Shown: positions 1,594 through 64,000 of the stretch, in pieces | How the letters are laid out: every line of letters begins with the position of its first letter | How positions within the stretch are numbered: the first letter of the stretch is position 1 | Assembly: GCA_947568835.1 (NCBI GenBank) | Contig: OX387610.1 | Location: forward strand, 3,155,001-3,219,000 | From: Protonemura montana | Lineage: Eukaryota; Arthropoda; Insecta; Plecoptera; Nemouridae | DNA length: 64,000 bases | Direction: 5' to 3' | The notes under the pieces: model-generated | Database searches by the model: none | What the model saw: the letters and a program-made list of their open reading frames with translations, nothing else | Told to the model about the DNA's origin: nothing | Program-made: the position numbers and the translations under genes

Positions 1594-1915
1594 GGGCCAT
1601 GTGGCACTGGTCTGATGGCGTCGGTGAATGAGAATACTCACGAATGTAATCTTATATAGATTAGAAGTGAGGAGAGGAAACCCGGTGCCGGGACGTAGCC
1701 TACTCCTGTCGAAGACCAAGGGGACCATCGGCTTAACGTCCCTTCCGAAGGACGGTACAACGCGAACAACAGGATTCCTCTACAAATCCATGCTGTCGAG
1801 AGGTTTATAAGCAAGGCGAATGAAGTTCCCTCCAACCTCTCTCCCGAACAGAACTGGTCATGTGTATGATGGTCACCCATAAAATACCTGGCCCAGTCTA
1901 GGACATGTGTTTCAA
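1594..1915 (-). mobile_element. 5S-head SINE, degraded single-unit copy
   Basis: In reverse complement this copy has a decayed 5S box C (GGTGACCATCATACACATGA), then the conserved body with CTTCGGAAGGGACGTTAAGC and ACAGGAGTAGGCTACGT, and the tail ending near the ACCAGTGCCACATGGCC motif. The 5' 5S head is diverged and only one 91-bp unit is present. Compared with full copies (for example 14684-15462) the microsatellite-like TCATCATCATC tract is replaced. Confidence 0.85.
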
Positions 1916-7282: not shown

Positions 7283-7574
7283 CCACCAAAGTTAAGCAGC
7301 ATTGGGCTGATGTTAGGTTTAGGATGGGTGACCATCATAAACATGACCAGTTGTATTCTGGAGAAGCGTTTAATATTCAACAACTTCATTCGCCTTGCTT
7401 ATCAACCTCTCGACAGCATGGATTTGTGGAGGAATCCTGTTGTTCGCGTTGTACCGTTCTTTGGAAGGGACGTTAAGCCTTGGTGCTATTCGACAGGAGT
7501 AGGCTACGTGCTGGCACCGGGTTTCCCCTCCTCCCTTCTAGGCTAGGTTAGGTTCATCATCATGCTATCATTAC
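7283..7574 (+). mobile_element. 5S-head SINE, single-unit copy
   Basis: It starts in the 5S-like box A (AAAGTTAAGCAGCATTGGG), followed by box C (GGATGGGTGACCATCATAAA), then the body (CTCGACAGCATGGATTTGTG, GGACGTTAAGCC, GACAGGAGTAGGCTACGTG). The end is truncated after AGGTTCATCATCAT, where the adjacent 86-bp array begins. A 66-base stretch between box C and the body is diverged from other copies. The extreme 5S head is missing. Confidence 0.9.
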
Positions 7575-11406: not shown

Positions 11407-13198
11407 AAAAAAAACTTACTTAATAAGAATTTATCGGATGAAAAAGTAAATTTAAAATATTACAAAGAAGACCGCAACCTGAAATTGGTAAGACTTCTGG
11501 GATGACATCTTCTAAAAACAAGCCCAACTTAAAGGAAAGTTGTTGCGATGGTTGAAATTAATTTACCTGGAGACCCAGAGGGCCGGGCTTCGAAGCCCGC
11601 ATGAAACATGTGAAATAATTTGCATGCTATTCGAGCCCCGGTGCAGTATATTTCACTTTTAACTGCAAATTAAAGCCTAGAACTGCGACGTTTTAATCAT
11701 GTTTATATGTTTTTCCGAGGGGCGGTTGCGGGGGGGGGGGGGGGGGGGGGGCACTTTACTCGCGCGTCCCGTTGCCCTGTAATGTAATGCAAGTCTGTCT
11801 AATAATATTAAAAATAATGCATAATATTATTATGATAGGGTTTAATATATCTACTTGATAATTTATTACTCGATCGTAATTCAATTTTGAACACGACCAA
11901 TCCGATGGCTCCCTTCCCCCCCCCCCCCGGCCCCCCTTTGCCACCCACGGAAAACTCGCCTGGAAAAACATAAATATGTGTAAAGGAAAGCGTTTGCTCA
12001 TGCGCGTAGTCGTCGTGCCCCGGGGTTTTAATAATAAATGACATGATTTGTTGATTTGTTGATTCAATTGAATGAGTTGTCAACATTTTCACAAAATATA
12101 TTCGCTACCCGGACGACTATTTGCTGACATTTTAAGCGATGCTGGAAGTTTTTAAACATTTCTAAACGACTGCTTAAAATGAAAGGGAAAACAAGAAAAA
12201 AAAAATTGGGATCCAAGCGATGTAATTGGTGGTTTACGGGTTGGAGTTTAATTACACTGCATGTATAAACTCAGTGCTGGTTTAGTTTTAACCAAGGAGT
12301 TAATGAACAGTTTAGAAAGAGTTACCAGAAGTTCTGATATAAATGTTGATTATCCTGCGTTATGGGCTATCGCATAAAATCAAATAACGGCTAATACGAT
12401 GACCGGGCAAGAAATCCACGGGGGCAGAAAGTTTGGGAATCTTTGCTCTAGAGGTTCACAAAGGCACAAAAAATCGGGAGAGAGGGAAAAAAAGTTAGAA
12501 TTTTTCGATTAAAAAAGTAGAAAATGTAGGAACACAGTTTCTAGGTCGGAGATAAAACTGGAATCTGCACGCGTAAGAAATGTGGAAGCTAAGGGTTTTT
12601 AAAAAACATCTAAAAAACCTTAAAATTAAAATCAAAATGAATGACAAAAAGATCTTGCAAATGGCTTTGCTTGTAGAACAATGTATTCTTGCGATCTAGC
12701 TTTGTAAACTCTGCTTAAAATGTCTGTCTTTTACCGTAAAGTCAATCTTCGATGAAAAGGTGACAACAAACTTTGTCAGCCATTTTTAAATGTGTCATAA
12801 TAATACTGAATCCAGTTTCCTATATGTGCACAAGCCAACAAGTTCTGAAACCAGTGCAACGGTCAAATGCGCCTGCGTGCGCTGCATTATAACTAACCCT
12901 CGTTACCCTGTTTATTCATCTGGCAACAAGCAATTACATGCCCTGATTTTTAACGGATTGTTTATATTTTCTTAACGGACCACTGCAAACTGGCACGGAC
13001 TTAACCGTGACGAACAACAATCTATTACGTCCGCCCAGGTCCACGTCATCAGGCGGAATAACATGTAACGTTTTGCGCGGGAAGAATTCCTAGATTCAAA
13101 ATATAAACACTACTAGCGCTCGAGTGGAGAAAACCAATACTTAACACTCGAATAAATAACCTTCGCTCTCCTGCCAAACAGCTTGACGTTTAGGAGAC
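11407..13198. other. unique sequence with long G and C runs, no gene supported
   Basis: A run of about 20 G lies at 11731-11750 and a C-rich run at 11918-11936, in complementary orientation about 170 bases apart. Open frames of 94-103 codons on the minus strand simply span the C run. Nothing else is recognised. Confidence 0.5.
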
Positions 13199-14006
13199 AC
13201 CGAAATTCAGCAACACTGCGCTGGGTCAGATATTGGATGGGTGACCATCATACACATGACCAGTTCTGTTCGGGAGAGAGGTTGGAGGTATGAAAGTTAA
13301 GCAACACTGCGCTGAGTCAGGTATTGGATGGGTGACCATCATACACATGACCAGTTCTGTTCGGGAGAGAGGTTGGAGGGATGAAAGTTAAGCAACACTG
13401 CGCTGAGTCAGGTATTGGATGGGTGACCATCATACACATGACCAGTTCTGTTCGGGAGAGAGGTTGGAGGTATGAAAGTTAAGCAACACTGCGCTGAGTC
13501 AGGTATTGGATGGGTGACCATCATAAACATGACCAGTTCTGTTCGGGAGAGAGGTTGGAGGTATGAAAGTTAAGCAACACTGCGCTGGGTCAGGTATTGG
13601 ATGGGTGACCATCATACACATGACCAGTTCTGTTCGGGAGAGAGGTTGGAGGTATGAAAGTTAAGCAACACTGCGCTGGGTTAGGTATTGGATGGGTGAC
13701 CATCATACACATGACCAATTCTGTTTGGGAGAGAGGTTGGAGAGATGAAAGTTAAGCAACACTGCGCTGGGTTCGAGTTCTGATGTTCGCGTTGTACCGT
13801 ACCGTCGGAAGGAACGTGAAACCGGTGGTCCCCTTGGTTTTCGACAGGAGTAGGCTAAGTGCCGGCATCGGGTTTCCCTTCCTCCCTTCTAGGCTATGTA
13901 AGGGTTATCATTATCCTCATCCTCATCATCATTCACTCATTCACCGACGCCATTACACCAGGGCCACGTGGCCAGTTGTCAAAACAGTGCGACGCTTAAC
14001 ACAAAA
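13199..14006 (+). mobile_element. 5S-head SINE with about 6 tandem 91-bp promoter units
   Basis: Starts ACCGAAATTCAGCAACACTG, a worn 5S box A. It then repeats box A (GAAAGTTAAGCAACACTGCG), the intermediate element (GTCAGGTATT) and box C (GGATGGGTGACC) every 91 bases (unit starts 13291 and 13382, for example). The last unit is fused by a deletion straight into the body at GTTCGCGTTGTACCGT, losing the CTTGCTTATCAACCTC segment. The tail with CATCCTCATCATC and GCCACGTGGCCAGTTGTC ends near 14006. Confidence 0.93.
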
Positions 14007-14683: not shown

Positions 14684-15462
14684 ACCGAACGGTTTGGTGT
14701 GTTGGAAACACGGTTCACGTGAGATCACCGAAGTTAAACAACACTGCGCTGAGTCAGGTATTGGATGGGTGACCGTCATACAAATGACCAGTTCTGTTCG
14801 GGAGAGAGGTTGGTGGGATGAAAGTTAAGCAACACTACGCTGAGTCAGGTATTGGATGGGTGACCGTCATACAAATGACCAGTTCTGTTCGGGAGAGAGG
14901 TTGGTGGGATGAAAGTTAAGCAACACTACGCTGAGTCAGGTATTGGATGGGTGACCGTCATACACATGACCAGTTCTGTTCGGGAGAGAGGTTGGTGGGA
15001 TGAAAGTTAAGCAACACTACGCTGAGTCAGGTATTGGATGGGTGACCGTCATACACATGACCAGTTCTGTTCGGGAGAGAGGTTGGTGGGATGAAAGTTA
15101 AGCAACACTGCACTGAGTCGGGTATTGGATGGGTGACCGTCATACACATGACCAGTTCTGTTCGGGAGAGAGGTTGGAGGGATGAAAGTTAGTACAGCAA
15201 CTTCTCTCGCCTTGCTTATCAACCTCTCGACAGCATGGATTTGTGAAGGAATTCTGTTAATCACGTTGTACCGTCCTTCGGAAGGGACGTTAAGCCGGTG
15301 GTCACCTTGGTCTTCGACAGGAGTAGGCTACGTGCCGGCACCGGGTTTCCCCTCCTCCATTCTAGACTAGGTTAGGTTCATCATCATCCACTCATTCACC
15401 GACGCCATTAGACCAGTGCCGCATGGCCAGTTGTCAAAACAGTGCGTCGTTAAACACCACAA
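14684..15462 (+). mobile_element. 5S-head SINE, complete copy with 5 tandem promoter units
   Basis: The most complete copy. The head reads ACCGAACGGTTTGGTGTG, TTGGAAACACGG and GTGAGATCACCGAAGTTAAA, clearly related to 5S rRNA (TTGAAAACACCGG.., GATCACCGAAGTTAAGCAAC, TTGGATGGGTGACC). The 91-bp unit is repeated about five times. The body has ACCGTCCTTCGGAAGGGACG, resembling the deeply conserved central domains of animal SINEs. The tail ends GTGCGTCGTTAAACACCAC, which resembles the 3' end of a partner LINE. Such elements are transcribed by RNA polymerase III from the internal 5S-type promoter (family knowledge). Confidence 0.95.
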
Positions 15463-16914: not shown

Positions 16915-19318
16915 ATCGGGTGGAGAGATGGAAGTTAAACAACACTGCGCTGGGTCAGGTATTGGATGGGTTACCATCATACACATGACCAGTTCTGTTC
17001 GGGAGAGAGGTTGGAGGGATGCAAGTTAAGCAACACTGCGCTGAGTCAGGTATTGAATGGGTGATCATCATACACATGACCAGTTCTGTTCGGGAGAGAG
17101 GTTGGAGAGATGAAAGTTAAACAACACTGCACTGGGTCAGGTATTGGATGGGTTACCATCATACACATGACCAGTTCTGTTTGGGAGAGAGGTTGGAGGG
17201 ATGAAAGTTAAGCAACACTGCGCTGGGTCAGGTATTGAATGGGTGACCATCATACACATGACCAGTTCTGTTCGGGAGAGGGGTTGGAGGGATGAAAGTT
17301 AAGCAACACTGCGCTGAGTCAGGTATTGAATGGGTGATCATCATACACATGACCAGTTCTGTTCGGGAGAGAGGTTGGAGAGATGAAAGTTAAGCAACAC
17401 TGCGCTAGGTCAGGTATTGGATGGGTGACCATCATACACATGACCAGTTCTGTTCGGGAGAGAGGTTGGAGGGATGCAAGTTAAGCAACACTGCGCTAGG
17501 TCAGGTATTGAATGGGTGATCATCATACACATGACCAGTTCTGTTCGGGAGAGGGGTTGGAGGGATGAAAGTTAAGCAACACTGCGCTGAGTCAGGTATT
17601 GAATGGGTGATCATCATACACATGACCAGTTCTGTTCGGGAGAGAGGTTGGAGAGATGAAAGTTAAGCAACACTGCGCTAGGTCAGGTATTGGATGGGTG
17701 ACCATCATACACATGACCAGTTCTGTTCGGGAGAGAGGTTGGAGGGATGCAAGTTAAGCAACACTGCGCTGGGTCAGGTATTGGATGGGTGACCATCATA
17801 CACATGACCAGTTCTGTTCGGGAGAGAGGATGGAGGGATGAAAGTTAAGTAACACTGCGCTGAGTCAGGTATTGGATGGGTGACCATCATACACATGACC
17901 AGTTCTGTTTGGGAGAGAGGTTGGAGGGATGAATGTTAAGCAACACTGCGCTGGGTCAGGTATTGGATGGGTGACCATCATACACATGACCAGTTCTGTT
18001 CGGGAGAGAGGTTGGAGGGATGCAAGTTAAGCAACACTGCGCTGGGTCAGGTATTGGATGGGTGACCATCATACACATGACCAGTTCTGTTCGGGAGAGA
18101 GGATGGAGGGATGAAAGTTAAGTAACACTGCGCTGAGTCAGGTATTGGATGGGTGACCATCATACACATGACCAGTTCTGTTTGGGAGAGAGGTTGGAGG
18201 GATGAATGTTAAGCAACACTGCGCTGGGTCAGGTATTGAATGGGTGACCATTATACACATGACCAGTTCTGTTTGGGAGAGAGGTTGAAGGGATGAAAGT
18301 TAAGCAGCACTGCGCTGGGTCAGGTATTGGATGGGTGACTATCATACACATGACCAGTTCTGTTTGGGAGAGAGATTGGAAGGATGAAAGTTAAGTAACA
18401 CTGCGTTGGGTCAGGTATTGCATGGGTGACCATCATACACATGACCAGTTCTGTTCGGGAGAGAGGTTGGAGGGATGCAAGTTAAGCAACACTGCGCTGG
18501 GTCAGGTATTGGATGGGTGACCATCATACACATGACCAGTTCTGTTCGGGAGAGAGGTTGGAGGGATGCAAGTTAAGCAACACTGCGCTGGGTCAGGTAT
18601 TGGATGGGTGACCATCATACACATGACCAGTTCTGTTCGGGAGAGAGGATGGAGGGATGAAAGTTAAGTAACACTGCGCTGAGTCAGGTATTGGATGGGT
18701 GACCATCATACACATGACCAGTTCTGTTTGGGAGAGAGGTTGGAGGGATGAATGTTAAGCAACACTGCGCTGGGTCAGGTATTGGATGGGTGACCATCAT
18801 ACACATGACCAGTTCTGTTCGGGAGAGAGGTTGGAGGGATGCAAGTTAAGCAACACTGCGCTGGGTCAGGTATTGGATGGGTGACCATCATACACATGAC
18901 CAGTTCCGTTCGGGAGAGAGGATGGAGGGATGAAAGTTAAGTAACACTGCGCTGAGTCAGGTATTGGATGGGTGACCATCATACACATGACCAGTTCTGT
19001 TTGGGAGAGAGGTTGGAGGGATGAATGTTAAGCAACACTGCGCTGGGTCAGGTATTGAATGGGTGACCATTATACACATGACCAGTTCTGTTTGGGAGAG
19101 AGGTTGAAGGGATGAAAGTTAAGCAGCACTGCGCTGGGTCAGGTATTGGATGGGTGACTATCATACACATGACCAGTTCTGTTTGGGAGAGAGATTGGAA
19201 GGATGAAAGTTAAGTAACACTGCGTTGGGTCAGGTATTGCATGGGTGACCATCATACACATGACCAGTTCTGTTTGGGAGAGAGGTTGAAGGGATGAAAG
19301 TTAAGCAACATTACCCAT
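16915..19318 (+). mobile_element. 5S-head SINE promoter satellite, about 26 tandem 91-bp units
   Basis: From 16929 to 19318 the 91-bp unit with box A, intermediate element and box C is repeated about 26 times, and there is no SINE body or tail after it. Marker variants GAGGATGGAGGG occur at 17826, 18099, 18645 and 18918. The spacings of 273 (3 units) and 819 (9 units) show block duplications. Flanks are worn: TTGACACCACTGGAATATCG on the left and ACATTACCCATTC on the right. The element has in effect become a satellite. Confidence 0.95.
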
Positions 19319-19747
19319 TCTACGATCAGACACCATGAGAGCAAACAGTTTTATTTCAAAAAAGCTATTAATGAACCAGCGCTTCTAGCAGAGCTGAAAT
19401 GGTGACAGAGAAGAGATGAGACAGAGTAAATAGTTGACCAGTTGAAAAGAGCTGCGAGGAATTGTGCTGTCATTACCGCTGTGAACTTACGGAGCGTATG
19501 CCGTGGCAGTCGGAGTTAATTTAAATATTCTCTTTCATTACTGCCTTTGATGGTAAATAGTTTGCAGAATTGAGTAACGCTGGAGTGGCAAGGGTAGCGA
19601 TACACTTGACTTTTGCTACAACTAATTTACTACAAACACGTCAAAATTTACTGCCTCTTGGCCTTTATTTGGCCAAAGTGAACCTAACCTAACTTATCTG
19701 AACATAGCCTAGAATCATTACCATACTAAACAAGATATTTTTAGAAA
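19319..19747. other. unique sequence, nothing recognised
   Basis: AT-rich spacer between two SINE-derived arrays. Contains GTGAACCTAACCTAAC near 19678. Confidence 0.45.
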
Positions 19748-21334: not shown

Positions 21335-21867
21335 ACCGAACGGTTTGGCGTGTTGGAAACACCGGTTTCCAACACGCGAACAGCAGGATTTCTCCACAAA
21401 TCCATGCTGTCGAGAGGTTGATAAGCAAGGCGAGTGAAGTTGTTGTACTAACTTTCATCCCTTCAACCTCTCTCCCGAACAGAACTGGTCATGTGCATGA
21501 TGGTCACCCATCCAATACCTGACTCAGCGCAGTGTTGCTTAACTTTCATCCCTCCAGCCTCTCTCCCGAACAGAACTGGTCATGTGCATGATGGTCACCC
21601 ATCCAATACCTGACCCAGCGCAGTGTTGCTTAACTTTCATCCCTCCAACCTCTCTCCCGAACAGAACTGGTCATGTGTATGATGGTCACCCATCCAATAC
21701 CTGACCCAGCGCAGTGTTGCTTAACTTTCATCCCTCCAACCTCTCTCCCGAACAGAACTGGTCATGTGTATGATGGTCACCCATCCAATACCTGACCCAG
21801 CGCACGTGTTGCTTAACTTCGGTGATCTCACGTGAACCTGTGTTTCTAACACGCCAAACCGTTCGGT
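21335..21867 (-). mobile_element. 5S-head SINE copy with an extra inverted 5S head
   Basis: In the minus direction the head at the right (ACCGAACGGTTTGGCGTG) leads into about four 91-bp units. The body is truncated at GAAATCCTGCTGTTCGCG, and the usual tail is replaced by a second head in plus orientation (ACCGAACGGTTTGGCGTG at 21335). Both ends of the block are therefore inverted 5S heads of at least 28 bases. Confidence 0.9.
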
Positions 21868-27518: not shown

Positions 27519-28372
27519 TTTAACGACGCACTGTTTGTGACATCTGGCCATGCGGCACTGGTCTAATGGCGTCGGTGAACGAGTGGATGATGATGAACCT
27601 AACCTAGTCTAGAAGGGAGGAGGGGAAACCTGGTGCCGGCACGTAGCCTACTCCAGTCGAAGAGCACCAAGGGGACCACCGGCTTAACGTTCCTTCCGAA
27701 GGACGGTACAACGCGAACACAGGTTTCCTGCACAAATCCATGCTGTAGAGAGGTTGATAAGCAAGGCGAGTGAAGTTGTACTAAATTTTATCCCTCCAAC
27801 CTCTCTCCCGAACAGAACTGGTCATGTGTATGATGGTCACCCATCCAATACCTGACTCAGCGCAGTGTTGCTTAACTTTCATCCCTCCAACCTCTCTCCC
27901 GAACAGAACTGGTCATGTGTATGATGGTCACCCATCCAATACATGACCCAGCGCAGTGTTGCTTAACTTTCATCCCTCCAACCTCTCTCCCGAACAGAAC
28001 TGGTCATGTGTATGATGGTCACCCATCCAATACATGACCCAGCGCAGTGTTGCTTAACTTTCATCCCTCCAACCTCTCTCCCGAACAGAACTGGTCATGT
28101 GTATGATGGTCACCCATCCAATACCTGACTCAGCGCAGTGTTGCTTAACTTTCATCCCTCCAACCTCTCTCCCGAACAGAACTGGTCATGTGTATGATGG
28201 TCACCCATCCAATACATGACCCAGCGCAGTGTTGCTTAACTTTCATCCCTCCAACCTCTCTCCCGAACAGAACTGGTCATGTGTATGATGGTCACCCATC
28301 CAATACATGACCCAGCGCAGTGTTGCTTAACTTTCATCCCTCCAACCTCTCTCAAACCGTCAAACCGTTTTA
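27519..28372 (-). mobile_element. 5S-head SINE with about 6 promoter units, head truncated
   Basis: The tail (GACGCACTGTTTGTGACATC, CACTGGTCTAATGGCGTCGG) and complete body are followed by about six 91-bp units, ending abruptly at CAACCTCTCTCAAACCGT. GACTCAGCG and GACCCAGCG variants are interspersed. The unique 5S head is reduced to CAAACCGTT. Confidence 0.92.
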
Positions 28373-29321: not shown

Positions 29322-29472
29322 CCTAGATAGCTCAGTTGGTAGACAGACCGGCAATTGAGAGGTCCCGAGTTTGTATCCCGGTTCGGTTGCACATTTTTCC
29401 AGTGTAGCTTTCCTTTCCATCCATCGCTTGCTGGTAAGAACTTAGCAAGTATACGATTGATGACTGATTGTG
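29322..29472 (+). mobile_element. tRNA-like SINE fragment of a different family
   Basis: GATAGCTCAGTTGGTAGACA is a good A-box region and GAGGTCCCGAGTTTGTATCC a degraded B-box region about 35 bases later, so the sequence resembles a tRNA head. It lacks a normal anticodon arm and is not a working tRNA gene. It is cut off by the tail of the 5S-head SINE that starts at 29473. Confidence 0.6.
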
Positions 29473-30044
29473 GTGTTTAGCGACGCACTGTTTTGACATC
29501 TGGCCATGTGGCACTGGTCTAATGGCGTCGGTGAATGAGTGGATGTTGATGAACCTAACCTAGACTAGAAGGGAGGAGGAGAAACTCGGTGACGGCACGT
29601 AGCCTACTCCTGTCGAAGACCAAGGGGACCACCGGCTTAACGTCCCTTCCGAAGGACGGTACAACGTGAACAACAGGATTCCTCCACAAATCCATGCTGT
29701 CGAGAGGTTGATAAGCAAGGCGAGTGAAGTTGCTGTACTAACTTTAATCTCTTCAACCTCTCTCCCGAACAGAACTGGTCATGTGTATGATGGTCACCCA
29801 TCTAATACCTGACTCAGCGCAGTGTTTCCTAACTTTCATCTCTTCAACCTCTCTCCCGAGCAGAACTGGTCATGTGTATGATGGTCACCCATCTAATACC
29901 TGACTCAGCGCAGTGTTGCTCAACTTTCATCCCTCCAACCTCTCTCCCGAACAGAACTGGACATGTATATGATGGTCACCCATCCAATACCTGACTCAGC
30001 GCAGTGTTGCTTACTTTCATCCCTCCAACCTCTCTCCCGAACAC
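29473..30044 (-). mobile_element. 5S-head SINE with about 3 promoter units
   Basis: Tail GTGTTTAGCGACGCACTG, full body (TAACGTCCCTTCCGAAGGAC), then three units with damage such as GTGTTTCCTAACTTTC. It stops at CTCTCCCGAACACGAG. The 5S head is missing. Confidence 0.92.
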
Positions 30045-36235: not shown

Positions 36236-36835
36236 TTACCTTTTTTATGTGCGCAAGTGTTTCGCAAGTTGGTATTAAAGTTGACAAGTCACATGTTACC
36301 AACTTAACTTCCCTGCAGCCTCGATATGTCAGGGTTGGTACCGCACGGTAGCTGCTACAATCACTCAAGGCTCAAGACGTGCTACGTCACTCTTGTGACG
36401 TGCATGAACCACCTGCCACTCCAGACGCAGCCGCAGACTTTAAATCGCGCAAAGTTATGAGTCTTTCTGTCCATTATGTCAGCTGGAATAATCCAAGAAT
36501 CCTGAAACATCTCAAGGAATCCGGAACCCGTGAGGGGAATGCACTGGATACCTGGCTCAAAGTAGGGATCAGGCCAGACATCCAGGGGACGGGTGTGGGG
36601 GGCGGGGGTGTTGTAAAGGAATGGCATTGAGGCAAGTCAATGGTGTGGAAGCCGTGAACGCTTTCATTGGGAATTCGGAGGCTGCCTGCTACAGTCAGCA
36701 TCTTGCTTTGACGGGCGACGTCTGTGTTCGAAAGCCAATGACAAGGAGGGTTGACTCGGGAGAAACTGGTGAGGCAATAATATGTTGAGCTGGTCTTTGG
36801 GTGGGAGGCGTTGAAAGAATATATCGGAGCAGCCG
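36236..36835. other. unique sequence, no gene supported
   Basis: Overlapping open frames of about 80-127 codons on both strands with no domain. GGTGTGGGGGGCGGGGGTG near 36593 is G-rich. Confidence 0.4.
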
Positions 36836-39800: not shown

Positions 39801-42800
39801 GCTGTTGGACAGGAGCAGCCAACACAGTGTGTCAAAGGGACAAGGCTAAGCGGTGGCCGGTCCTTGGTGCTGTTGGACAGGAGCAGCCAACACAGTGTGT
39901 CAAAGGGACAAGGTTAAGCGGTGGCCGGTCCTTGGTGCTGTTGGATAGGAGCAGCCAACACAGTGTGTCAAAGTGACAAGGCTAAGCGGTGGCCGGTCCT
40001 TGGTGCTGTTGGACAGGAGCAGCCAACACAGTGTGTCAAAGTGACAAGGCTAAGCGGTGGCCGGTCCTTGGTGCTGTTGGACAGGAGCAGCCAACACAGT
40101 GTGTCACAGGGACAAGGCTAAGCGGTGGCCGGTCCTTGGTGCTGTTGGACAGGAGCAGCCAACACAGTGTGTCAAAGGGACAAGGTTAAGCGGTGGCCGG
40201 TCCTTGGTGCTGTTGGACAGGAGCAGCCAACACAGTGTGTCACAGTGACAAGGCTAAGCGGTGGCCGGTTCCTGGTGCTGTTGGACAGGAGCAGCCAACA
40301 CAGTGTGTCAAAGTGACAAGGCTAATCGGTGGTCGGTCCTTGGTGCTGTTGGACAGGAGCAGCCAACACAGTGTGTCAAAGGGACAAGGTTAAGCGGTGG
40401 CCGGTCCTTGGTGCTGTTGGACAGGAGCAGTCAACACAGTGTGTGAAAGGGACAAGACTAAGCGGTGGCCGGTCCTTGGTGCTGTTGGACAGGAGCAGTC
40501 AACACAGTGTGTGAAAGGGACAAGGCTAAGCGGTGGCCGGTCCTTGGTGCTATTGGACAGAAGCAGCCAACACAGTGTGTCAAAGTGACAAGGCTAAGCG
40601 GTGGCCGGTCCTTGGTGCTGTTGGACAGGAGCAGCCAACACAGTGTGTCAAAGGGACAAGGCTAAGCGGTGGCCGGTCCTTGGTGCTGTTGGACAGGAGC
40701 AGCCAACACAGTGTGTCAAAGGGACAAGGCTAAGCGGTGGCCGGTCCTTGGTGCTGTTGGACAGGAGCAGCCAACACAGTGTGTCAAAGAGACAAGACTA
40801 AGTGGTGGCCGGTCCTTGGTGCTGTTGGACAGGAGCAGCCAACACAGTGTGTCAAAGTGACAAGGCTAAGCGGTGGCCGGTCCTTGGTGCTGTTGGACAG
40901 GAGCAGTCAACACAGTGTGTCAAAGTGACAAGGCTAAGCGGTGGCCGGTCCTTGGTGCTGTTGGACAGGAGCAGCCAACACAGTGTGTCAAAGTGACAAG
41001 GCTAAGCGGTGGCCGGTCCTTGGTGCTGTTGGACAGGAGCAGTCAACACAGTGTGTCAAAGTGACAAGGCTAAGCGGTGGCCAGTCCTTGGTGCTGTTGG
41101 ACAGGAGCAGCCAACACACTGTGTCAAAGTGACAAGGCTAAGCGGTGGCCGGTCCTTGGTGCTGTTGGACAGGAGCAGCCAACACACTGTGTCAAAGTGA
41201 CAAGGCTAAGCGGTGGCCGGTCCTTGGTGCTGTTGGACAGGAGCAGCCAACACAGTGTGTCAAAGGGACAAGGCTAAGCGGTGGCCGGTTCTTGGTGCTG
41301 TTGGACAGAAGCAGCCAACACAGTGTGTCAAAGGGACAAGGCTAAGCGGTGGCCGGTCCTTGGTGCTGTTGGACAGGAGCAGCCAACACACTGTGTCAAA
41401 GTGACAAGGCTAAGCGGTGGCCGGTCCTTGGTGCTGTTGGACAGGAGCAGCCAACACAGTGTGTCAAAGAGACAAGACTAAGTGGTGGCCGGTCCTTGGT
41501 GCTGTTGGACAGGAGCAGTCAACACAGTGTGTCAAAGTGACAAGGCTAAGCGGTGGCCGGTCCTTGGTGCTGTTGGACAGGAGCAGCCAACACAGTGTGT
41601 CAAAGTGACAAGGCTAAGCGGTGGCCGGTCCTTGGTGCTGTTGGACAGGAGCAGTCAACACAGTGTGTCAAAGTGACAAGGCTAAGCGGTGGCCAGTCCT
41701 TGGTGCTGTTGGACAGGAGCAGCCAACACACTGTGTCAAAGTGACAAGGCTAAGCGGTGGCCGGTCCTTGGTGCTGTTGGACAGGAGCAGCCAACACACT
41801 GTGTCAAAGTGACAAGGCTAAGCGGTGGCCGGTCCATGGTGCTGTTGGACAGGAGCAGCCAACACAGTGTGTCAAAGGGACAAGGCTAAGCGGTGGCCGG
41901 TTCTTGGTGCTGTTGGACAGAAGCAGCCAACACAGTGTGTCAAAGGGACAAGGCTAAGCGGTGGCCGGTCCTTGGTGCTGTTGGACAGGAGCAGCCAACA
42001 CACTGTGTCAAAGTGACAAGGCTAAGCGGTGGCCGGTCCTTGGTGCTGTTGGACAGGAGCAGCCAACACACTGTGTCAAAGTGACAAGGCTAAGCGGTGG
42101 CCGGTCCTTGGTGCTGTTGGACAGGAGCAGCCAACACAGTGTGTCAAAGGGACAAGGCTAAGCGGTGGCCGGTTCTTGGTGCTGTTGGACAGAAGCAGCC
42201 AACACAGTGTGTCAAAGGGACAAGGCTTAGCGGTGGCCGGTCCTTGGTGCTGTTGGACAGGAGCAGCCAACACACTGTGTCAAAGTGACAAGGCTAAGCG
42301 GTGGCCGGTCCTTGGTGCTGTTGGACAGGAGCAGCCAACACAGTGTGTCAAAGAGACAAGACTAAGTGGTGGCCGGTCCTTGGTGCTGTTGGACAGGAGC
42401 AGCCAACACAGTGTGTCAAAGGGACAAGGCTAAGCGGTGGCCGGTCCTTGGTGCTGTTGGACAGGAGCAGCCAACACACTGTGTCAAAGTGACAAGGCTA
42501 AGCGGTGGCCGGTCCTTGGTGCTGTTGGACAGGAGCAGCCAACACAGTGTGTCAAAGAGACAAGACTAAGTGGTGGCCGGTCCTTGGTGCTGTTGGACAG
42601 GAGCAGCCAACACAGTGTGTCAAAGTGACAAGGCTAAGCGGTGGCCGGTCCTTGGTGCTGTTGGACAGGAGCAGTCAACACAGTGTGTCAAAGTGACAAG
42701 GCTAAGCGGTGGCCGGTCCTTGGTGCTGTTGGACAGGAGCAGCCAACACAGTGTGTCAAAGTGACAAGGCTAAGCGGTGGCCGGTCCTTGGTGCTGTTGG

Positions 42801-43188
42801 ACAGGAGCAGTCAACACAGTGTGTCAAAGGGACAAGGCTAAGCGGTGGCCGGTTCTTGGTGCTGTTGGACAGAAGCAGCCAACACAGTGTGTCAAAGGGA
42901 CAAGGCTAAGCGGTGGCCGGTCCTTGGTGCTGTTGGACAGGAGCAGCCAACACACTGTGTCAAAGTGACAAGGCTAAGCGGTGGCCGGTCCTTGGTGCTG
43001 TTGGACAGGAGCAGCCAACACACTGTGTCAAAGTGACAAGGCTAAGCGGTGGCCGGTCCTTGGTGCTGTTGGACAGGAGCAGCCAACACACTGTGTCAAA
43101 GGGACAAGGCTAAGCGGTGGCCGGTCCTTGGTGCTGTTGGACAGGAGCAGTCAACACAGTGTGTCAAAGAGACAAGGCTAAGCGGGGA
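36836..43188. repeat. 68-bp satellite array, about 93 copies (6.35 kb)
   Basis: Units (GGACAAGGCTAAGCGGTGGC, CGGTCCTTGGTGCTGTTGGA, CAGGAGCAGCCAACACAGTG, TGTCAAAG) repeat every 68 bases. The marker GTCAATGGAG occurs at 37524, 37863, 38202 and 38881 (339 or twice 339.5 apart, five units with a 1-base loss) and at 39492. A second higher-order block of 9 units (612 bases) repeats around 41077 and 41689. The left edge is the most diverged. Because 68 is not a multiple of 3, each unit restarts a 66-codon frame; these are not genes. Confidence 0.97.
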
Positions 43189-45123: not shown

Positions 45124-46335
45124 TTTGGGTTTACAGGTTTAGTCAGAGTCACAGCGCTAATGTTAAACGTCCTGTCATTGGGTTTACAGGTTTAGTCAGA
45201 GTCACAGCGCTAATGTTAAACGTCCTGTCATTGGGTTTACAGGTTTAGTCAGAGTCACAGCGCTAATGTTAAACGTCCTGTCATTGGGTTTACAGGTTTA
45301 GTCAGAGTCACAGCGCTAATGCTAAACGTCCTGTCATTGAGTTTACAGGTTGAGTCAGAGTCACAGCGCTAATGTTAAACGTCCTGCCATTGGGTTTACA
45401 GGTTTAGTCAGAGTCACAGCGCTAATGTTAAACGTCCTGCCATTGGGTTTACAGGTTTAGTCAGAGTCACAGCGCTAATGTTAAACGTCCTGCCATTGGG
45501 TTTACAGGTTTAGTCAGAGTCACAGCGCTAATGTTAAACGTCCTGTCATTGGGTTTACAGATTTAGTCAGAGTCACAGCGCTAATGTTTAACTGTCTTCG
45601 CACAAAATGGCCACCAAATGACTGCACTTTACAGCGACAAAAATGTAGGATGCCGCCAGATGGAGTCACCGTCGTTTCGAGTGTTAAGAAATTTAATTTC
45701 GCAGATTACTCGCATTTGAGACTGGTTTACACTCAATTAATCTTTATTGATGCTAACCTCAACGATTGATAAACATGTATCGCGATATTTTGAGTCGTTA
45801 TTATTTAATTGTAGAGGTTTGTTCAAAAGAACATCTGCAAGCGCCATCGGGTGGCACCTACCGTTACCACGTGTTGCCGGCCTCGTTTGCTCAGCAGCAA
45901 GCGCCATCGGGTGGCACCTACCGTTACCACGTGTTGCCGGCCTCGTTTGCTCAGCAGCAAGCGCCATCGGGTGGCAGCTACCGTTACCACGTGTTGCCGG
46001 CCTCGTTTGCGCGGCAGCAAGCGCCATCGGGTGGCACCTACCGTTACCACGTGTTGCCGGCCTCGTTTGCTCAGCAGCAAGCGCCATCGGGTGGCACCTA
46101 CCGTTACCACGTGTTGCCGGCCTCGTTTGCTCAGCAGCAAACGCCATCGGGTGGCACCTACCATTACCACGTGTTGCCGGCCTCATTTGCTCAGCAGCAA
46201 GCGCCATCGGGTGGCACCTACCGTTACCACGTGTTGCCGGCCTCGTTTGCTCAGCAGCAAGCGCCATCGGGTGGCACCTACCGTTACCACGTGTTGCCAG
46301 CCTCGTTAACTCTGACTCAACGTATAATCATAAAA
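45124..46335 (+). mobile_element. composite inverted-end element, longest copy
   Basis: About nine 53-bp units (CATTGGGTTTACAGGTTTAG, TCAGAGTCACAGCGCTAATG, TTAAACGTCCTG) are followed by the core at about 45590-45838 (CTTCGCACAAAATGGCCACC, GTAGGATGCCGCCAGATGG, AACGATTGATAAACATGTAT). Eight 60-bp units (45838-46312) and the start of a forward 53-bp unit (TAACTCTGACTCAACGTATA) complete it. Its order mirrors the minus-strand copy at 26.5 kb exactly. Array lengths differ between copies (9 and 8 here; about 5 and 2 there) while the core is conserved. Confidence 0.9.
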
Positions 46336-46831
46336 GTAGCATTGAAAATACGAAAACAAAAGCTCGCGGTTTTAAAGATAAACCACTTTATATTTACCAA
46401 CGGCCTTTTTTTTGTTATTAATATGGCAGCACTTCTTGAAAATTTAACGAGCAGACACATTTCGCACGCTTGCCAACCTGCGAACACACTTCGAGCTCGA
46501 CGAAGAATTGCCGCAATGCTTCACATTTGTTCCCCTACCAACCCGACCCATCCTACCCCACCCCAACCCACCGCACTCCTTCCACGCCGACCTCACCGCG
46601 GCGATGTCGTAAAACATAGCAAATGCGTCGTCGAACAGCGCGTTTGACGACGCACTTGCGGTCGGTCGTAACCAACGGGAGGTTATATGAGTTCTGGGAT
46701 ATTTTATTATTTGAGTGGTTTTTGAGGGTTTCGCCACATCTGTATGTTTAAATACTGTGAAGCATTAACCAAGACGCTTGTCACGCTGCACGGAAATAGA
46801 CGGCGAAACAGTGAACTTAATTATATTCTGC
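46336..46831. other. unique sequence, no gene supported
   Basis: A C-rich tract CCTACCCCACCCCAACCCAC lies near 46551. Open frames here continue out of the 60-bp repeats or are short. Confidence 0.45.
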
Positions 46832-47642
46832 TGTTTAACGACGCACTGTTTTGACAACGGGCCCAGTGATAATAAGAAATATGATTAAATTCATCTAGCT
46901 TAGAGAGGAAGAGGGGAAATCCAGTGCCGGCACGTAGCCTACTCCTGTCGAATAGCACCAATGGAACCACTGGCTTAGCGGTCCTTCCGAAGGACGGTAC
47001 AACGTGAACAACAGAATTCCTCCACAAATCCATGCTGTCGAGAGGTTGATAAGCAAGGCGAGTGAAGTTGCTGAACTAACTTTCATCCCTCCAACCTTTC
47101 TACCGAACAGAACTGGTCATGTGTATGATGGTCACTCATCCAATACCTGACCCAGCGCAGTGTTGTTTAACTTTCATCCCTCCAACCTCTCTCCCGAACA
47201 GAACGGGGCATGTGTATGATGGTCACCCATTCAATACCTGACTCAGCGCAGTGTTGCTTAACTTTCATCCTTCCAACCTCTCTCCCGAACAGAACTGGGC
47301 ATGTGTATGATGGTCACCCATTCAATACCTGACTCAGCGCAGTGTTGCTTAACTTTCATCCTTCCAACCTCTCTCCCGAACAGAACTGGGCATGTGTATG
47401 ATGGTCACCCATACAATACCTGACCCAGCGCAGTGTTACTTAACTTTCATCCCTCCAACCTCTCTCCCAAACAGAACTGGTCATGTGTATGATGGTCACC
47501 CATCCAATACCTGACTCAGCACAGTGTTGCTTAACTTTCATCCCTCCAGCCTCTCTCCCGAACAGAACTGGTAATGTGTACGATGGTCATCCATCCAATA
47601 CCTGACCCAGCGCAGTGTTGCTTAACCTCGGTGATCTAACGA
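46832..47642 (-). mobile_element. 5S-head SINE with about 6 promoter units
   Basis: The tail is partly deleted (GACGCACTGTTTTGACAACG joined directly to GTGATAATAAG). The body is complete, then come about six 91-bp units and a head remnant CTCGTTAGATCACCGAGG on the minus strand. The TCATCATC tract is lost. Confidence 0.92.
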
Positions 47643-51525: not shown

Positions 51526-52100
51526 TCTTGGACCTAAACCTGTCCAACAGCACCAAGGACCGGCCACCGCTTAGCCTTGTCCCTTTGACACACTGTGTTG
51601 GCTGCTCCTGTCCAACAGCACCAAGGACCGGCCACCGCTTAGCCTTGTCCCTTTGACACACTGTGTTGGCTGCTCCTGTCCAACAGCACCAAGGACCGGC
51701 CACCGCTTACCCTTGTCCCTTTGACACACTGCGTTGGCTGCTTCTGTCCAACAGCACCAAGGACCGGCCATCGCTTAGCCTTGTCACTTTGACACACTGT
51801 GTTGGCTGCTCCTGTCCAACAGCACCAAGGACCGGCCACCGCTTAGCCTTGTCACTTTGACACACTGTGTTGGCTGCTCCTGTCCAACAACACCAAGGAC
51901 CGGCCACCGCTTAGCCTTGTCCCTTTGACACACTGTGTTGGCTGCTCCTGTCCAACAGCACCAAGGACCGGCCACCGCTTAGCCTTGTCACTTTGACACA
52001 TTGTGTTGGCTGCTCCTGTCCAACAGCACCAATGACCGGCCACCGCTTAGCCTTGTCCCTTTGACACACTGTGTTGGCTGCTCCTGACCAACAGCACCTG
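51526..52100. repeat. inverted block of the 68-bp satellite, about 8 copies
   Basis: These are the same units as 36836-43188 but in reverse complement (CTTAGCCTTGTCCCTTTGAC, CAACAGCACCAAGGACCGGC). They lie 8.3 kb beyond the main array and end at ACCAACAGCACCTGTCC. The unit variant with GTCACTTTGACAC is shared with late units of the main array. Confidence 0.95.
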
Positions 52101-54621: not shown

Positions 54622-55320
54622 GATTTCACAGCATAAAACGCATCCAACGTCAAATTGGAGTTACTCGAGATTGACAGGTTGTGACGTGATATAGCGTCAC
54701 TAGAATCAGAGTGACTGTGAGTATTCACAGCCTCTTGGTTCTACTCCTTGGAGATCCGTCATTCTCATCAAATACACTAAAATCCTGTCAACAAATTATG
54801 TGTCCAAGTAGCTCAATTGGTTAGAGCAACACCCGCGACAGGTGGAGATCGGGGTCCAAGTAGCTCAATTGGTTAGAGCAACACCCGCGACAGGTGGAGA
54901 TCGGGGTCCAAGTAGCTCAATTGGTTGGAGCAACACCCGCGACAGGTGGAGATCGGGGTTCAAGTAGCTCAATTGGTTAGAGCAACACCCGCGACAGGTG
55001 GAGATCGGGGTCCAAGTAGCTCAATTGGTTGGAGCAACACCCGCGACAGGTGGCGATCGGGGTCCAAGTAGCTCAATTGGTTAAAGCAACACCCGCGACA
55101 GGTGGAGATCGGGGTCAAAGTAGCTCAATTGGTTAGAGCAACACCCGCGACAGGTGGAGATCGGGGTCCAAGTAGCTCAATGGTTTAGAGCAACACCCGC
55201 GACAGGTGCAGATCGGGGTTCAAGTCTCCGTTTGGACAACAATTTTTGAGCGGTTATTACTGTTCCTAATAATTAAATACCCCGCGCATTGCAAGCGTTT
55301 GCAATTTATAAAAGATTTTA
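54622..55320 (+). mobile_element. tRNA-head SINE with full leader and 8 tandem units
   Basis: The leader (GAGATTGACAGGTTGTGACG, TGATATAGCGTCACTAGAAT, CCTTGGAGATCCGTCATTCT) is followed by A boxes at about 54809, 54861 and so on to 55173 at 52-base spacing. A final T-arm (GGGGTTCAAGTCTCCG), TTTTTGAGCGGTTATTACTG and the 3' end to AAAAGATTTTAC complete it. This is the best full-length representative of the amplified form. Confidence 0.93.
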
Positions 55321-56196
55321 CAAGAAATCTAGTAACGCAATCAATTATACAATAAAAACGACATAAAAGTAGGTCCAAGCACATGTTTTCGTTAGATTTT
55401 TTCTAGTATCCATTCGATTTCCCAATCCGTATTCTCATTGCAAACAAACTTGACCCAGGTTTATCAACAACAACATGAACGTTAGACATTGACACCCAAC
55501 CGCTCTGTTATTCTTCTCATTGCAATGCCCAGCAATCTGATCCGACCAGGATCACATCACATCACTTCTACCTCCAGCAAGATAAACCAGCAGGACAATT
55601 CACACGCTGTGTTAGCCCAATCTTACATCCTTACATCCTTACATCCTTATATTCTTATATAAGGTACTGTGCTAATTTTATTGCCCAGTAATCAGATATC
55701 CAAGCCTTGTGGCGACCACGCCGAGCCACTGAGAGCGTTCATGCAACGGCTGCACCCGATGGTCAACCCTCCCCTCGGGGCAATCCGGTGTGATCTTATC
55801 TTCCAGTATCAACTCCCCTTCAAGACGCTGGACCACAGCATCTCGGAGCTCCCTGGCGGCAGAATCGGCCGGGCCAAGCGCTAAACATGTTTTATAGCCT
55901 CGTGATTTTCACAGCTCGCTTCTCGGCGTCCCTCGGGGCCCGACGGCGTCGGCGTCGGCGTCGGTCGAGAGTGAGCCATCAGTGGCGTCGATGTCGTGGG
56001 ACGTTTTTGATTTGGATGGTGGACAGATTTTTCACAGACTCGTTTCTGTTTTGAGAAACACATTTTCAACAATTCGGGTTTTCCGGTTCCAAAGCTGAGT
56101 TGTCTTGAAGAAATATCATTGCGAAATGCAGCGAGAACATCTGAAAGTTGTGTATTGATGACAGCGTTATCAGTAAGAAACGTTTATTAATTAGTG
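55321..56196. other. unique sequence, no gene supported
   Basis: TTACATCC is repeated about three times at 55623-55645. CGACGGCGTCGGCGTCGGCG at about 55945 is a CpG-rich patch. A 71-codon frame (55669-55884) has no recognisable domain. Confidence 0.4.
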
Positions 56197-56757
56197 GTGT
56201 TTAACGACGCACTGTTTTGACATCTAGCCATGTGGAATTGGCATAATAGTGTGGGAGAACGAGAAGACCCAAAGTCACCTAGAAGGGAGGAGAGGAAACC
56301 CGGTGACGGCACGTAGCCTACTCCTGTCGAATACCAAGGGGACCACCGGCTTCACGTCCCTTCCGAAGGACGGTACAACGCGAACAACAGGATTCCTCCA
56401 CAAATCCATGCTATCGAGAGGTTGATAAACAAGGCGAGTGAAGTTGCTGTACTAACTTTCATCCCTCCAACCTCTCTCCCAACCGAACAGAATTAGTCAT
56501 GTGTAGGATGATCACCCATCCAATACCTGACTCAGTGCAGTGTTGCTCAACTTTCACCCCTGCAACCTCTCTTCCGAAGAGAACTGGTCATGTGTACGAT
56601 GGTCACCCATACAATACCTGACTCAGCACAGTGTTGCTTAACTTTCATCCCTCCAACCTCTCTCCCGAACAGAACTGGTCATGTGTATGATGGTCATCCA
56701 TACAATACCTGACTCAGCACAGTGTTGCTTAACTTCGGTGATCTTACGAGGACCTGT
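56197..56757 (-). mobile_element. 5S-head SINE with about 3 promoter units and head remnant
   Basis: Tail GTGTTTAACGACGCACTG, body, then units with substitutions (GACTCAGTGCAGTG, GACTCAGCACAGTG), and the 5S head junction reading TCGTAAGATCACCGAAGT on the minus strand. It stops before the ACCGAACGG start. Confidence 0.92.
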
Positions 56758-59942: not shown

Positions 59943-60605
59943 TCATTCATTACGTTTAGTTCTTAATCTACTCGTCCAAATATTTTCTTCTGGATCCTTT
60001 GTGCTGACTTCTTCTGTCTCCTCACTGATATTCTCTATTCCAATTTTCTTTTGTAAAATTGTTCTCCAAGCTCTATCTAGTTGAAAACTATCATCTCTAT
60101 CGAAGTTATTGGGCTGTATTTTTAATTCCTTTAGCTTCTCTGACTTTTCTGGTGAATTTCCTATCATCTCGACATAAAATCCTCACCTTGTCTATTTCAA
60201 TGTGGTGTTGAAACTCAATCCCGTGTTCTGCAAAAGCTGCTTTATTTAAGTGTCTTTGTTTTTCCCCAACAATGCAAGATTGTTTTGCTAATCTTATGTG
60301 TCTTTCATGTTCCATGACTCTTGTGCTAATTTTCCTACCTGTTTCTCCTATGTAAACTTTTCCACACTCACAACTTACCTCATAGACGTCTTTGCATTCT
60401 AATGGAACCTGATGCTTCACTGGTCTTACCATTGTACTTATTTTTCTATCTGCCCTAAATTCTGTAAAAATCTGGTTTTTCGACAGTACTTTTTGAATCT
60501 TCTCTCCTATCTTAGGTACATATGATAAAACTGCTATGGGTTTGATTTCATCTAAACTGCTTTCACTAATTCCCTATTCAATTTATTCAGAGTATACTTC
60601 CAACC
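59943..60605 (-). pseudogene. Penelope-like retroelement, 3' remnant with GIY-YIG endonuclease domain
   Basis: A minus-strand frame from 60432 down to 60106 (continuing upstream in frame to about 60570) encodes a GIY-YIG endonuclease. It shows VYEVSCECG (the GIY position with the Cys pair typical of Penelope-like enzymes), VYIGETGRK (the YIG position and following Arg), TRVMEHERHIR, and later AFAEHGIEF. The segment before it (AVLSYVPKIGEKI, VLSKNQIFTEF) matches the linker between reverse transcriptase and endonuclease in this class. The C-terminal part (NNFDRDDSFQLDRAW) lies in a different frame (60167-59943), so there is one frameshift in an A/T run near 60116-60122. An in-frame stop near 60577 and the absence of the reverse transcriptase show 5' truncation. 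It is dead. In the intact family this protein reverse-transcribes and nicks target DNA. The family is assigned from the motifs, with good confidence. Confidence 0.85.
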
Positions 60606-62062: not shown

Positions 62063-62557
62063 AATAACACTAATAACCTCTCAAAAATTGATGCCCAGAT
62101 GGAGACTCGAACCCCGATCTCCACCTGTCACGGGTGTTGCTCTAACTAATTGAGCTACTTGGACCCCGATCTCCACTTGTCGCGGGTGTTGCTCTAGCCA
62201 ATTGAGCTACTTGGACCCCGATCTCCACCTGTCACGGGTGTTGCTCTAACCAATTGAGCTACTTGAACCCCGATCTTCACCTGTCGCGAGTGTTGCTCTA
62301 GCCAATTGAGCTACTTGGACCCCGATCTCCACTTGTCGCGAGTGTTGCTCTAGCCAATTGAGCTACTTGGACCCCGATCTCCACCTGTCGCGGGTGTTGC
62401 TCTAACCAATTGAGCTACTTGGACCCCGATCTCCACCTGTCGCGAGTGTTGCTCTAGCCAATTGAGCTACTTGGACACATCACTTTTGAGAGGATTTTAG
62501 TGCTCCTAACAATAAAGTACACCACGCATTAAACAAGGTTGCTATTTAAATCAGATC
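62063..62557 (-). mobile_element. tRNA-head SINE with 7 tandem units
   Basis: Minus-strand units with GCTCAATTGGCTAGAGC or TTGGTTAGAGC A boxes recur every 52 bases. Only the unit nearest the 3' end (left side, about 62100) keeps the full T-arm (GGGGTTCGAGTCTCC). The two flanks (AACACTAATAACCTCTCAAA and TTTGAGAGGATTTTAGTG) are partly inverted. The outer left 3' end is truncated. Confidence 0.92.
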
Positions 62558-62941: not shown

Positions 62942-63099
62942 TTTTTAGACTCATGTCTACTTGATGTAAACTTAGCACTAGTTTAGACAAAAACTATTTC
63001 AACTGGGTCTTGAATGCAAAGTGAAGAACAACTAAATTTCCCAACGTTTCGTTACTTGTACCTGTTACTTTATCAAGGGTCAAAGCAGTCCTGACAAAT
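62942..63099 (+). repeat. dispersed repeat R, left half
   Basis: From TTTTTAGACTCATGTCTAC to AGCAGTCCTGACAA. It is cut at the point where the opposite-strand copy follows 55 bases later. Confidence 0.85.
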
Positions 63100-63154
63100 T
63101 AAATCTCCATAAAATTTTGACCAACATTCACTGGCTTTAGTTCCAAATGAGATG

Positions 63155-63367
63155 TGATTAAGTTATTGACCCTGATTATTTTATTTAGATGCATTTAGGA
63201 AGCTTGAACTTGGTAATTTTTATAATTTTTTGTGGTTCTTTTGTTATTGGAAAATTGTCAGGACTGCTCTTACCCTTGATAAAGTAACGGGTACAAGTTA
63301 CGAAACGTTGGGAAATTTAGTTGTTCTTTACTTAGCATTCAAAACCCAGTTGAAATAGTTTTTGTTC
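63155..63367 (-). repeat. dispersed repeat R, inverted partner
   Basis: GTTATTGACCCTGATTATTT, ATGCATTTAGGAAGCTTGAA, AATTGTCAGGACTGCTC and GTTGAAATAGTTTTTG are the family blocks in reverse. With 62942-63099 it forms an inverted pair sharing about 120 bases. Confidence 0.88.
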
Positions 63368-63516: not shown

Positions 63517-64000
63517 CGCCGAACGGTTTGTCGTGTTGGAAACACTGGTCCTCGTGAGATCACCGAAGTTAAGCAACACTGCGCTGAGTCAGGTATTGGA
63601 TGGGTAATCATCATACATATGACCAGTTCTGTTCGGGAGAGAGGTTGGAGGGATGAAAGTTAAGCAACACTGCGCTGAGTCAGGTATTGGATGGGTGACC
63701 ATCATACACATGACCAGTTCTGTTCGGGAGAGAGGCTGGAGGGATGAAAGTTAGTACAGCAACTTCTCTCGCCTTGCTTATCAACCTCTCGACAGCATGG
63801 ATTTGTGGAGGAATCCTGTTGTTCGCGTTGTACCGTCCTTCGGAAGGGACGTTAAGCCGGTGGTCCCCTTGGTGCTTTTCGACAGGAGTAGACTACGTGC
63901 CGGTACCTTTTTCCCCTCCTCCCTTCTAGTCTAGGTAAGGTTCATCATCATCCTCATCATCATCATCCACTCATTCACCGACGCCATTAAACCAGTGCCG
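63517..64000 (+). mobile_element. 5S-head SINE, complete to the window edge, 2 promoter units
   Basis: The head GCCGAACGGTTTGTCGTG, TTGGAAACACTGGTCCTCGT, GAGATCACCGAAGTTAAGCA is the closest to 5S rRNA in the window. Two 91-bp units follow, then the intact body junction GATGAAAGTTAGTACAGC and the tail up to ACCAGTGCCG, where the window ends. This copy is the best reference for how the tandem unit arose. Confidence 0.95.

What the first reader, a model, noticed from the sequence alone, without database searches (positions are those of the whole stretch)
63517..63790. 5S-type SINE promoter amplified through a built-in mimic of its own box A
In the SINE body, just after the first 91 bases, the sequence GATGAAAGTTAGTACAGCAAC (split here: GATGAAAGTTAGTA and CAGCAAC) resembles the 5S box A start GATCACCGAAGTTAAGCAAC. 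Every tandem unit junction is a hybrid: its left part (GATGAAAGTTA) comes from the body and its right part (AGCAACACTG) from box A. Unequal exchange or template switching between these two similar sites would produce exactly the 91-bp promoter units seen in 2 to 26 copies at nine loci in the window. Each added unit carries a whole type 1 internal promoter (box A, intermediate element, box C). I do not know of a described SINE family with tandem 5S promoters of this kind.
Basis: partly seen in the sequence, partly recalled or inferred. Interest (0 to 1): 0.88.

Follow-up and report, generated by a model that had tools for sequence, protein, structure and literature searches.

The report
Tandem 5S promoters inside a SINE
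A short mobile element whose promoter comes from 5S ribosomal RNA carries 2 to 26 head-to-tail copies of that promoter at different places, apparently from one old micro-duplication that later grew locally, much as satellite DNA is born from SINEs in reptiles.

Summary
A 5S rRNA-derived SINE at 63517 onward holds two 91-bp units. Nine loci hold about 2, 3, 3, 4, 5, 6, 6, 6 and 26 units; two more copies hold one. By sequence each unit contains box A, IE and box C. The junctions fuse body GATGAAAGTTA with box A AGCAAC; the contiguous shared letters are six, AAGTTA.

The six-base match explains where the first duplication fell, not the later growth. The one-unit model has 11 shared words of six or more letters within range, yet 9 of 9 loci use the same one, and the other half of the proposed mimic was found at no junction. 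This favours one founding duplication, then local growth through 91-bp homology. Units share locus-private variants (0 of 10,000 permutations as strong), and the 26-unit array has a three-unit period.

Nothing shows that amplification serves the promoter. The boxes are no more conserved than the rest of the unit, and a SINE-body segment with no Rfam promoter-RNA match reached about 94 copies. The closest known kind is the SINE-derived satellites of squamates; this looks like a 5S, promoter-complete variant. Species, transcription and polymorphism are unknown.

The parts
63517..63566 (+). 5S-derived head of the SINE (5S positions about 1-49)
   Evidence: Rfam RF00001 match 63518-63638
63567..63657 (+). 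promoter unit 1 (91 bp): box A about 63567-63581, IE 63584-63589, box C 63597-63614, then about 20 bp of body
   Evidence: TRF, Rfam alignment; box limits recalled from Xenopus 5S numbering 50-64, 67-72, 80-97
63658..63748 (+). promoter unit 2 (91 bp)
63743..63763 (+). body site GATGAAAGTTAGTACAGCAAC; shares AAGTTA with box A
63749..64000 (+). SINE body and tail with ATC repeats, cut by the window end
   Evidence: blastn against other copies
13196..14002 (+). 5S SINE, about 6 units; head and body seem to carry internal deletions (read by eye)
14684..15462 (+). 5S SINE, 5 units, head, body and tail present
16921..19310 (+). free 26-unit array without SINE head or body; three-unit higher-order period
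21336..21867 (-). 5S SINE, 4 units; truncated body joined to a 31-nt inverted copy of the head
27519..28353 (-). 5S SINE, 6 units, head mostly deleted
29468..30043 (-). 5S SINE, 3 units; head weakly recognisable at best
46826..47640 (-). 5S SINE, 6 units, head truncated at about 5S position 34
56194..56757 (-). 5S SINE, 3 units
1595..1896 (-). single-unit copy, box A region deleted
7290..7571 (+). single-unit copy; 5S part about 19% diverged; body start lacks the AAGTTA match

Best explanation
A 5S rRNA-derived SINE acquired one 91-bp internal duplication bounded by a six-base direct repeat (AAGTTA, in box A and in the start of the body), probably by replication slippage or microhomology-mediated repair (inferred). 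Copies with two or more units were then dispersed (inferred from a single shared junction). At each site the array grew, shrank and was partly homogenised through the 91-bp homology between units, by unequal exchange, gene conversion or slippage (local growth shown at several loci; the molecular route inferred). One array, 16921-19310, now exists without SINE ends and is in effect a small satellite. The promoter content of the unit is a by-product of where the six-base repeat lay (inferred).
For: The junction lies on an exact 6-bp match; 0.17% of possible junctions have 6 or more. 9 of 9 loci share the junction although 11 shared words of 6 or more letters were available. Differences per unit within versus between loci: 4.29 versus 6.16 (35 units of eight loci, 16921 left out); 0 of 10,000 label permutations reach this gap. 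Unit tree: 21 locus changes against a shuffled mean of 33.2, minimum 29 in 300 shuffles. Locus-private variants sit in neighbouring units, for example at 14731, 27782 and 47077. In array 16921 the lag distances are lowest at lags 9 and 3. In the seven loci with intact first and last units, first-to-last divergence within a locus is 6.75%, the same as first units between loci (6.75%) and close to last units between loci (7.3%), so the two-unit state is about as old as the dispersal. Promoter boxes: 1.21 change events per site against 0.98 elsewhere in the unit; 15,799 of 20,000 shuffles are at least as favourable to box conservation.
Against: Recurrent events at one and the same 6-bp match would leave the same junction, so single origin is argued, not shown. 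First and last units show no position-specific kinship across loci (fractions 0.39 and 0.84 of random draws at or below observed; first-to-last between loci 7.1%). At 29738, 47077 and 56453 within-locus distance equals or exceeds the distance to other loci, so local homogenisation is not general. Column 21 (G/A) is polymorphic inside 5 of 9 loci, but 1,619 of 20,000 simulations reach 5 or more, so it is weak support for inherited mixed arrays. Between loci the units differ less (6.6%) than the bodies (10.0%, 28 pairs): exchange between loci, constraint on the whole unit, or noise in the body alignment are not told apart. No convincing target-site duplications were found in nine copies examined.
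Confidence: 0.7

Rival explanations
1. One reading: recurrent unequal exchange or template switching between box A and its mimic creates units again and again, at each locus.
For: The junction is on the match; the diverged single-unit copy at 7290 lacks the AAGTTA match; a recurrent event at one match leaves the same junction.
Against: Eleven comparable words, one used in 9 of 9 loci; three patterns for an AGCAAC junction gave 0 hits. First-to-last unit divergence is as large as divergence between loci, not younger.
Confidence: 0.15
2. Multi-unit RNA is retrotransposed and the reverse transcriptase changes unit number by slippage or re-initiation during cDNA synthesis, so number varies at the birth of each copy.
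For: Unit types are shared between loci (13202 unit 2 equals 27782 unit 3) and column 21 is mixed within 5 of 9 loci. No TTTT run lies in any array on the element's strand, so Pol III could read through. Secondary initiation of cDNA synthesis is proposed for repeat variants in the cockroach SINE Sbg3 (PMC9191728, passages).
Against: Locus-private variants spread over adjacent units and the three-unit period of 16921 need growth after private mutations arose; slippage at birth would copy old unit types only.
Confidence: 0.3
3. Selection for extra promoters: more type 1 promoters give more Pol III transcript, so multi-unit masters won.
For: Each unit has box A, IE and box C by sequence; nine multi-unit against two one-unit copies in the window. 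Units as a whole differ less between loci than bodies do.
Against: Boxes are not more conserved than the rest of the unit. Other arrays are common: a 68-bp segment resembling the SINE body reaches about 94 copies, and Rfam finds no 5S or tRNA in it. A passage in PMC3272025, citing Kapitonov and Jurka, says type 1 promoters depend much on upstream signals.
Confidence: 0.12
4. Assembly collapse or expansion made the unit numbers.
For: No reads were available here.
Against: Units differ by locus-private substitutions, and the flanks of the nine arrays printed look unrelated to each other outside the element (read by eye). The exact number at 16921 could still be wrong.
Confidence: 0.05

Closest known systems
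SINE-derived satellites (sSats) of squamate reptiles, Vassetzky et al. 2023, PMC10702118 (abstract, section on Squam3-derived satellites and Discussion read)
   Same: Tandem units cut from part of a SINE; the snake unit (67 nt) spans the 3' part of the head with box B plus some body; a longer end unit retains SINE sequence; locus-specific, sometimes alternating subvariants; unit number varies widely by locus.
   Different: The snake unit described includes box B of a tRNA-type head; here the head is 5S-derived and the unit holds all three boxes of a type 1 promoter. Several loci here keep both head and body around the array; the paper reports both termini only in minor variants. There, homogenisation between loci is strong in rich genomes.
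5S rRNA-derived SINEs (insect examples HaSE3 in PMC3272025 and PxSE4/PxSE5 in PMC8010984; passages seen)
   Same: 5S-derived head with box A, IE and box C, then body and tail.
   Different: The word 'tandem' occurs 0 times in the main text of either paper.
MITE arrays grown at microhomologies (Xenopus miDNA4 of Scalvenzi and Pollet, as described in the review PMC12628747; passages seen)
   Same: Short direct repeats of 5 bp or more proposed to drive internal array growth; longer arrays can lose the element ends and become satellites.
   Different: DNA transposon without a 5S-type promoter; a pre-existing tandem repeat is thought to have been captured.
Dimeric and multimeric SINEs (as summarised in the Discussion of PMC10702118 and in passages of PMC9191728)
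   Same: More than one promoter-bearing head in one copy; SINEs with short internal duplications of about 30 nt are also mentioned.
   Different: Whole SINEs joined, or short duplications, rather than a 91-bp promoter segment in up to 26 copies.
5S rDNA-derived satellites (Hoplias, Physalaemus, Plantago; titles seen in the reference list of PMC12692304)
   Same: 5S-derived tandem repeats.
   Different: By their titles derived from 5S rDNA itself, not from a SINE (papers not read).
Cassandra tandem arrays in plants (PMC7215508, search listing only)
   Same: 5S promoter-bearing retroelement in tandem.
   Different: LTR element; not read further.

Membership tests
5S rRNA-derived SINE | 5' region derived from 5S rRNA | tested here: met
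   Rfam RF00001 above gathering at 3 copies, full model length
5S rRNA-derived SINE | box A, IE and box C | tested here: met
   by alignment only; box limits recalled; no activity shown
5S rRNA-derived SINE | many dispersed copies with common body and tail | tested here: met
   11 copies counting the free array, plus a fragment, in 64 kb, both strands
5S rRNA-derived SINE | target-site duplications | tested here: not met
   nine copies, ends set by eye, exact shared words only; longest shared words were 8 letters at 13202 and 1603, judged not convincing by their positions; diverged duplications not excluded, so the name SINE stays provisional
5S rRNA-derived SINE | 3' end shared with a partner LINE | not tested
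   no LINE was searched for; no eukaryotic collection on hand
SINE-derived satellite (sSat) | tandem unit is a sub-segment of a SINE, with SINE sequence beyond at an array end | tested here: met
   8 of 9 arrays; not 16921
SINE-derived satellite (sSat) | variable unit number by locus | tested here: met
   2.1 to 26.3
SINE-derived satellite (sSat) | homogenisation within loci or locus subvariants | tested here: met
   over all loci together, but not at 29738, 47077 and 56453 taken singly
SINE-derived satellite (sSat) | subtelomeric preference (reported trend) | not testable with these tools
   chromosome position unknown

The most novel reading that the evidence does not exclude
Multi-unit copies are live masters: tandem complete type 1 promoters raise Pol III output, multi-unit RNAs retrotranspose, and unit number drifts both in cDNA synthesis and in the genome, so the SINE evolves its promoter dosage as a variable-number repeat.
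Probability: 0.13. Interest if true: 0.75.

Novelty: new variant of a known kind. Interest (0 to 1): 0.45.

Why it matters
It gives a compact case, inside 64 kb, of the steps from dispersed SINE to internal array to free satellite, for a 5S-derived element. If multi-unit copies are transcribed, copies with 1 to 26 complete promoters would be a natural dosage series for testing whether adjacent type 1 promoters add up. It also suggests that a short direct repeat inside a SINE decides which segment becomes a satellite, which can be tested genome-wide.

Tried and rejected
A fixed multimeric master for all copies: rejected, unit number and private variants differ. A cluster of 5' truncations just upstream of box A: suspected from the flanks, dropped, where best head alignments reach upstream of that point at most loci, often in deleted or weak form (29738 and 7290 stay doubtful). 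Column 21 (G/A) as proof of inherited mixed arrays: too weak. Position-specific kinship of first or last units: none. Whole-genome search: no genome is held. Two viral-contig pattern scans: 0 hits. Text search for body letters: 0 papers.

Errors corrected: one search joined the one-unit model with one base too many and gave an 8-bp match; one search repeats it correctly (6 bp). The junction count was wrong by a pattern fault; one search replaces it, and one search shows that two of its 58 matches are first box A sites. First-to-last divergence was recomputed on one common measure. The 52-bp permutation includes three single-unit loci that enter only the between-locus side. 16921 was left out of the main permutation (all loci together: 4.98 within, 6.05 between); 16921 and 13202 were left out of the position tests.

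Full report
What is there. The window (64 kb, eukaryotic to judge by its repeats, species unnamed) holds a SINE-like element whose head is 5S rRNA-derived: RF00001 matches at 14684-14803, 21746-21867 (-) and 63518-63638, all over model positions 1-120. After the 5S part come a body of about 250 bp with ATC repeats and a common tail. In nine places a 91-bp segment, 5S position about 50 to the start of the body, is tandemly repeated 2.1 to 26.3 times. Two further copies have one unit. At 16921-19310 the array stands without SINE head or body.

The unit. By the Rfam alignment and recalled Xenopus numbering, the unit carries box A (AGTTAAGCAACACTG), IE (CTGRGT) and box C (TGGATGGGTGACCATCAT). No TTTT run on the element's strand lies in any of the nine arrays; the ones found are in the body or tail of two copies, 13202 and 63566, so Pol III read-through of arrays is possible. 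Whether any copy is transcribed is unknown.

The junction. Removing one unit from the 63517 copy gives a one-unit model in which box A reads GAAGTTAAGCAAC and the body reads GAAAGTTAGTACAGCAAC. The contiguous match is AAGTTA, six letters; 78 of 47,005 possible junctions with unit 30-200 bp have a match of six or more. So the junction is on a microhomology more than chance predicts. Eleven shared words of six or more letters exist in that range, including AGCAAC at 95 bp, the other half of the mimic. Of 58 matches to the hybrid 21-mer (4 mismatches or fewer), all inside the nine arrays, 56 are hybrid junctions and two are first box A sites; one more junction, at 29738, has a one-base deletion. 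Three patterns for a junction at AGCAAC found nothing at 1 mismatch or fewer. This argues for one founding event, though repeated events at the one match would look alike.

After the founding event. 61 complete units were compared. Leaving 16921 out, units differ by 4.29 within and 6.16 between loci; 0 of 10,000 permutations reach that gap. On a FastTree tree, locus labels change 21 times; 300 shuffles give a mean of 33.2 and a minimum of 29. Private variants run through neighbouring units (14731: all five units share one and four share another; 27782: four of six; 47077: three of six). In 16921 the distance is lowest at lags 9 and 3. These show local growth. It is not general: within-locus distance equals or exceeds the distance to other loci at 29738, 47077 and 56453, and 63566 has two units only. 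In the seven loci with intact end units, first-to-last divergence within a locus is 6.75%, first-to-first between loci 6.75%, last-to-last 7.3%, first-to-last between loci 7.1%. So the two-unit state is old, but no memory of unit position is left. Bodies differ by 10.0% between loci and units by 6.6% (28 pairs); exchange between loci, constraint on the unit, and alignment noise in the body remain open.

Is it about promoters? Change events per site are 1.21 in the boxes and 0.98 outside them in the unit: no sign that the boxes in particular are kept. Tandem growth is common here: 33 longer arrays picked from the TRF table cover 24,473 of 64,000 bases. The 68-bp arrays at 36826-43185 (about 94 copies) and 51539-52098 resemble the central body of this SINE (score 30 against a maximum of 26 in 2,000 mononucleotide shuffles; blastn E 2.5e-5), and Rfam finds no 5S or tRNA in them. 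A tRNA-containing element shows a parallel: 52-bp units in five arrays (4.0 to 14.8 copies) and three single-unit copies. Its junction lies between the element's 5' end and box B. The two sites agree at 8 of 12 letters in two of the three single-unit copies (equalled by 28 of 8,505 and 19 of 7,605 site pairs; in the 16090 copy the best pairing lies a few bases upstream) and at 6 of 12 in the third (283 of 6,705). Its arrays are weakly structured by locus (3.31 within, 4.07 between; 20 of 2,000 permutations as strong), while the 60-, 68- and 53-bp families are not (1434, 1771 and 1302 of 2,000), so the test is not positive by default.

Compared with what is known. SINE-derived satellites in squamates (PMC10702118) share the plan: sub-segments of a SINE in tandem, a promoter box included in the snake unit, variable number, locus subvariants, a longer end unit. 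Microhomology-driven array growth inside an element is proposed for Xenopus miDNA4 (review PMC12628747, passages). 5S-headed SINEs are known in insects (PMC3272025, PMC8010984, passages). I found no report of a 5S SINE with tandem promoters in ten text searches of the open PMC library, of which searches returned no paper; subscription papers and repeat databases were not searched.

Verdict. A real feature, correctly read from the letters; a new variant of SINE-derived tandem arrays. The mimic is a six-base direct repeat that most likely seeded one duplication. A role in promoter dosage is open and unsupported.

Noticed in passing
36826-43185 and 51539-52098: A 68-bp satellite of about 94 and 8 copies resembles the central body of the 5S SINE (GGGACGTTAAGC...GACAGGAGTAG).
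   Followed up: partly
11121-11385, 19746-20514, 25428-25637, 54802-55225, 62111-62476; single units at 16090, 16464, 32415: A tRNA-containing element with inverted flanks in which a 52-bp box A segment is tandemly repeated; its junction sits on the resemblance between box B and the element's 5' end.
   Followed up: partly
26542-27191 and 45125-46307: Apparently one element in two orientations, each with two different internal arrays (60 bp and 53 bp) around a spacer of about 245 bp, with differing unit numbers (read by eye).
   Followed up: no
21336-21459: This 5S SINE copy ends in a 31-nt inverted copy of its own head, giving it terminal inverted repeats.
   Followed up: no
33888-34961: A 70-bp unit with tRNA-like box A and box B sequence (motifs recalled) repeated about 15 times.
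   Followed up: no
62950-63360 and 60106-60573: Sequence resembling a Penelope-like element (recalled resemblance; Pfam gave no match to the ORF at 60106-60573).
   Followed up: no
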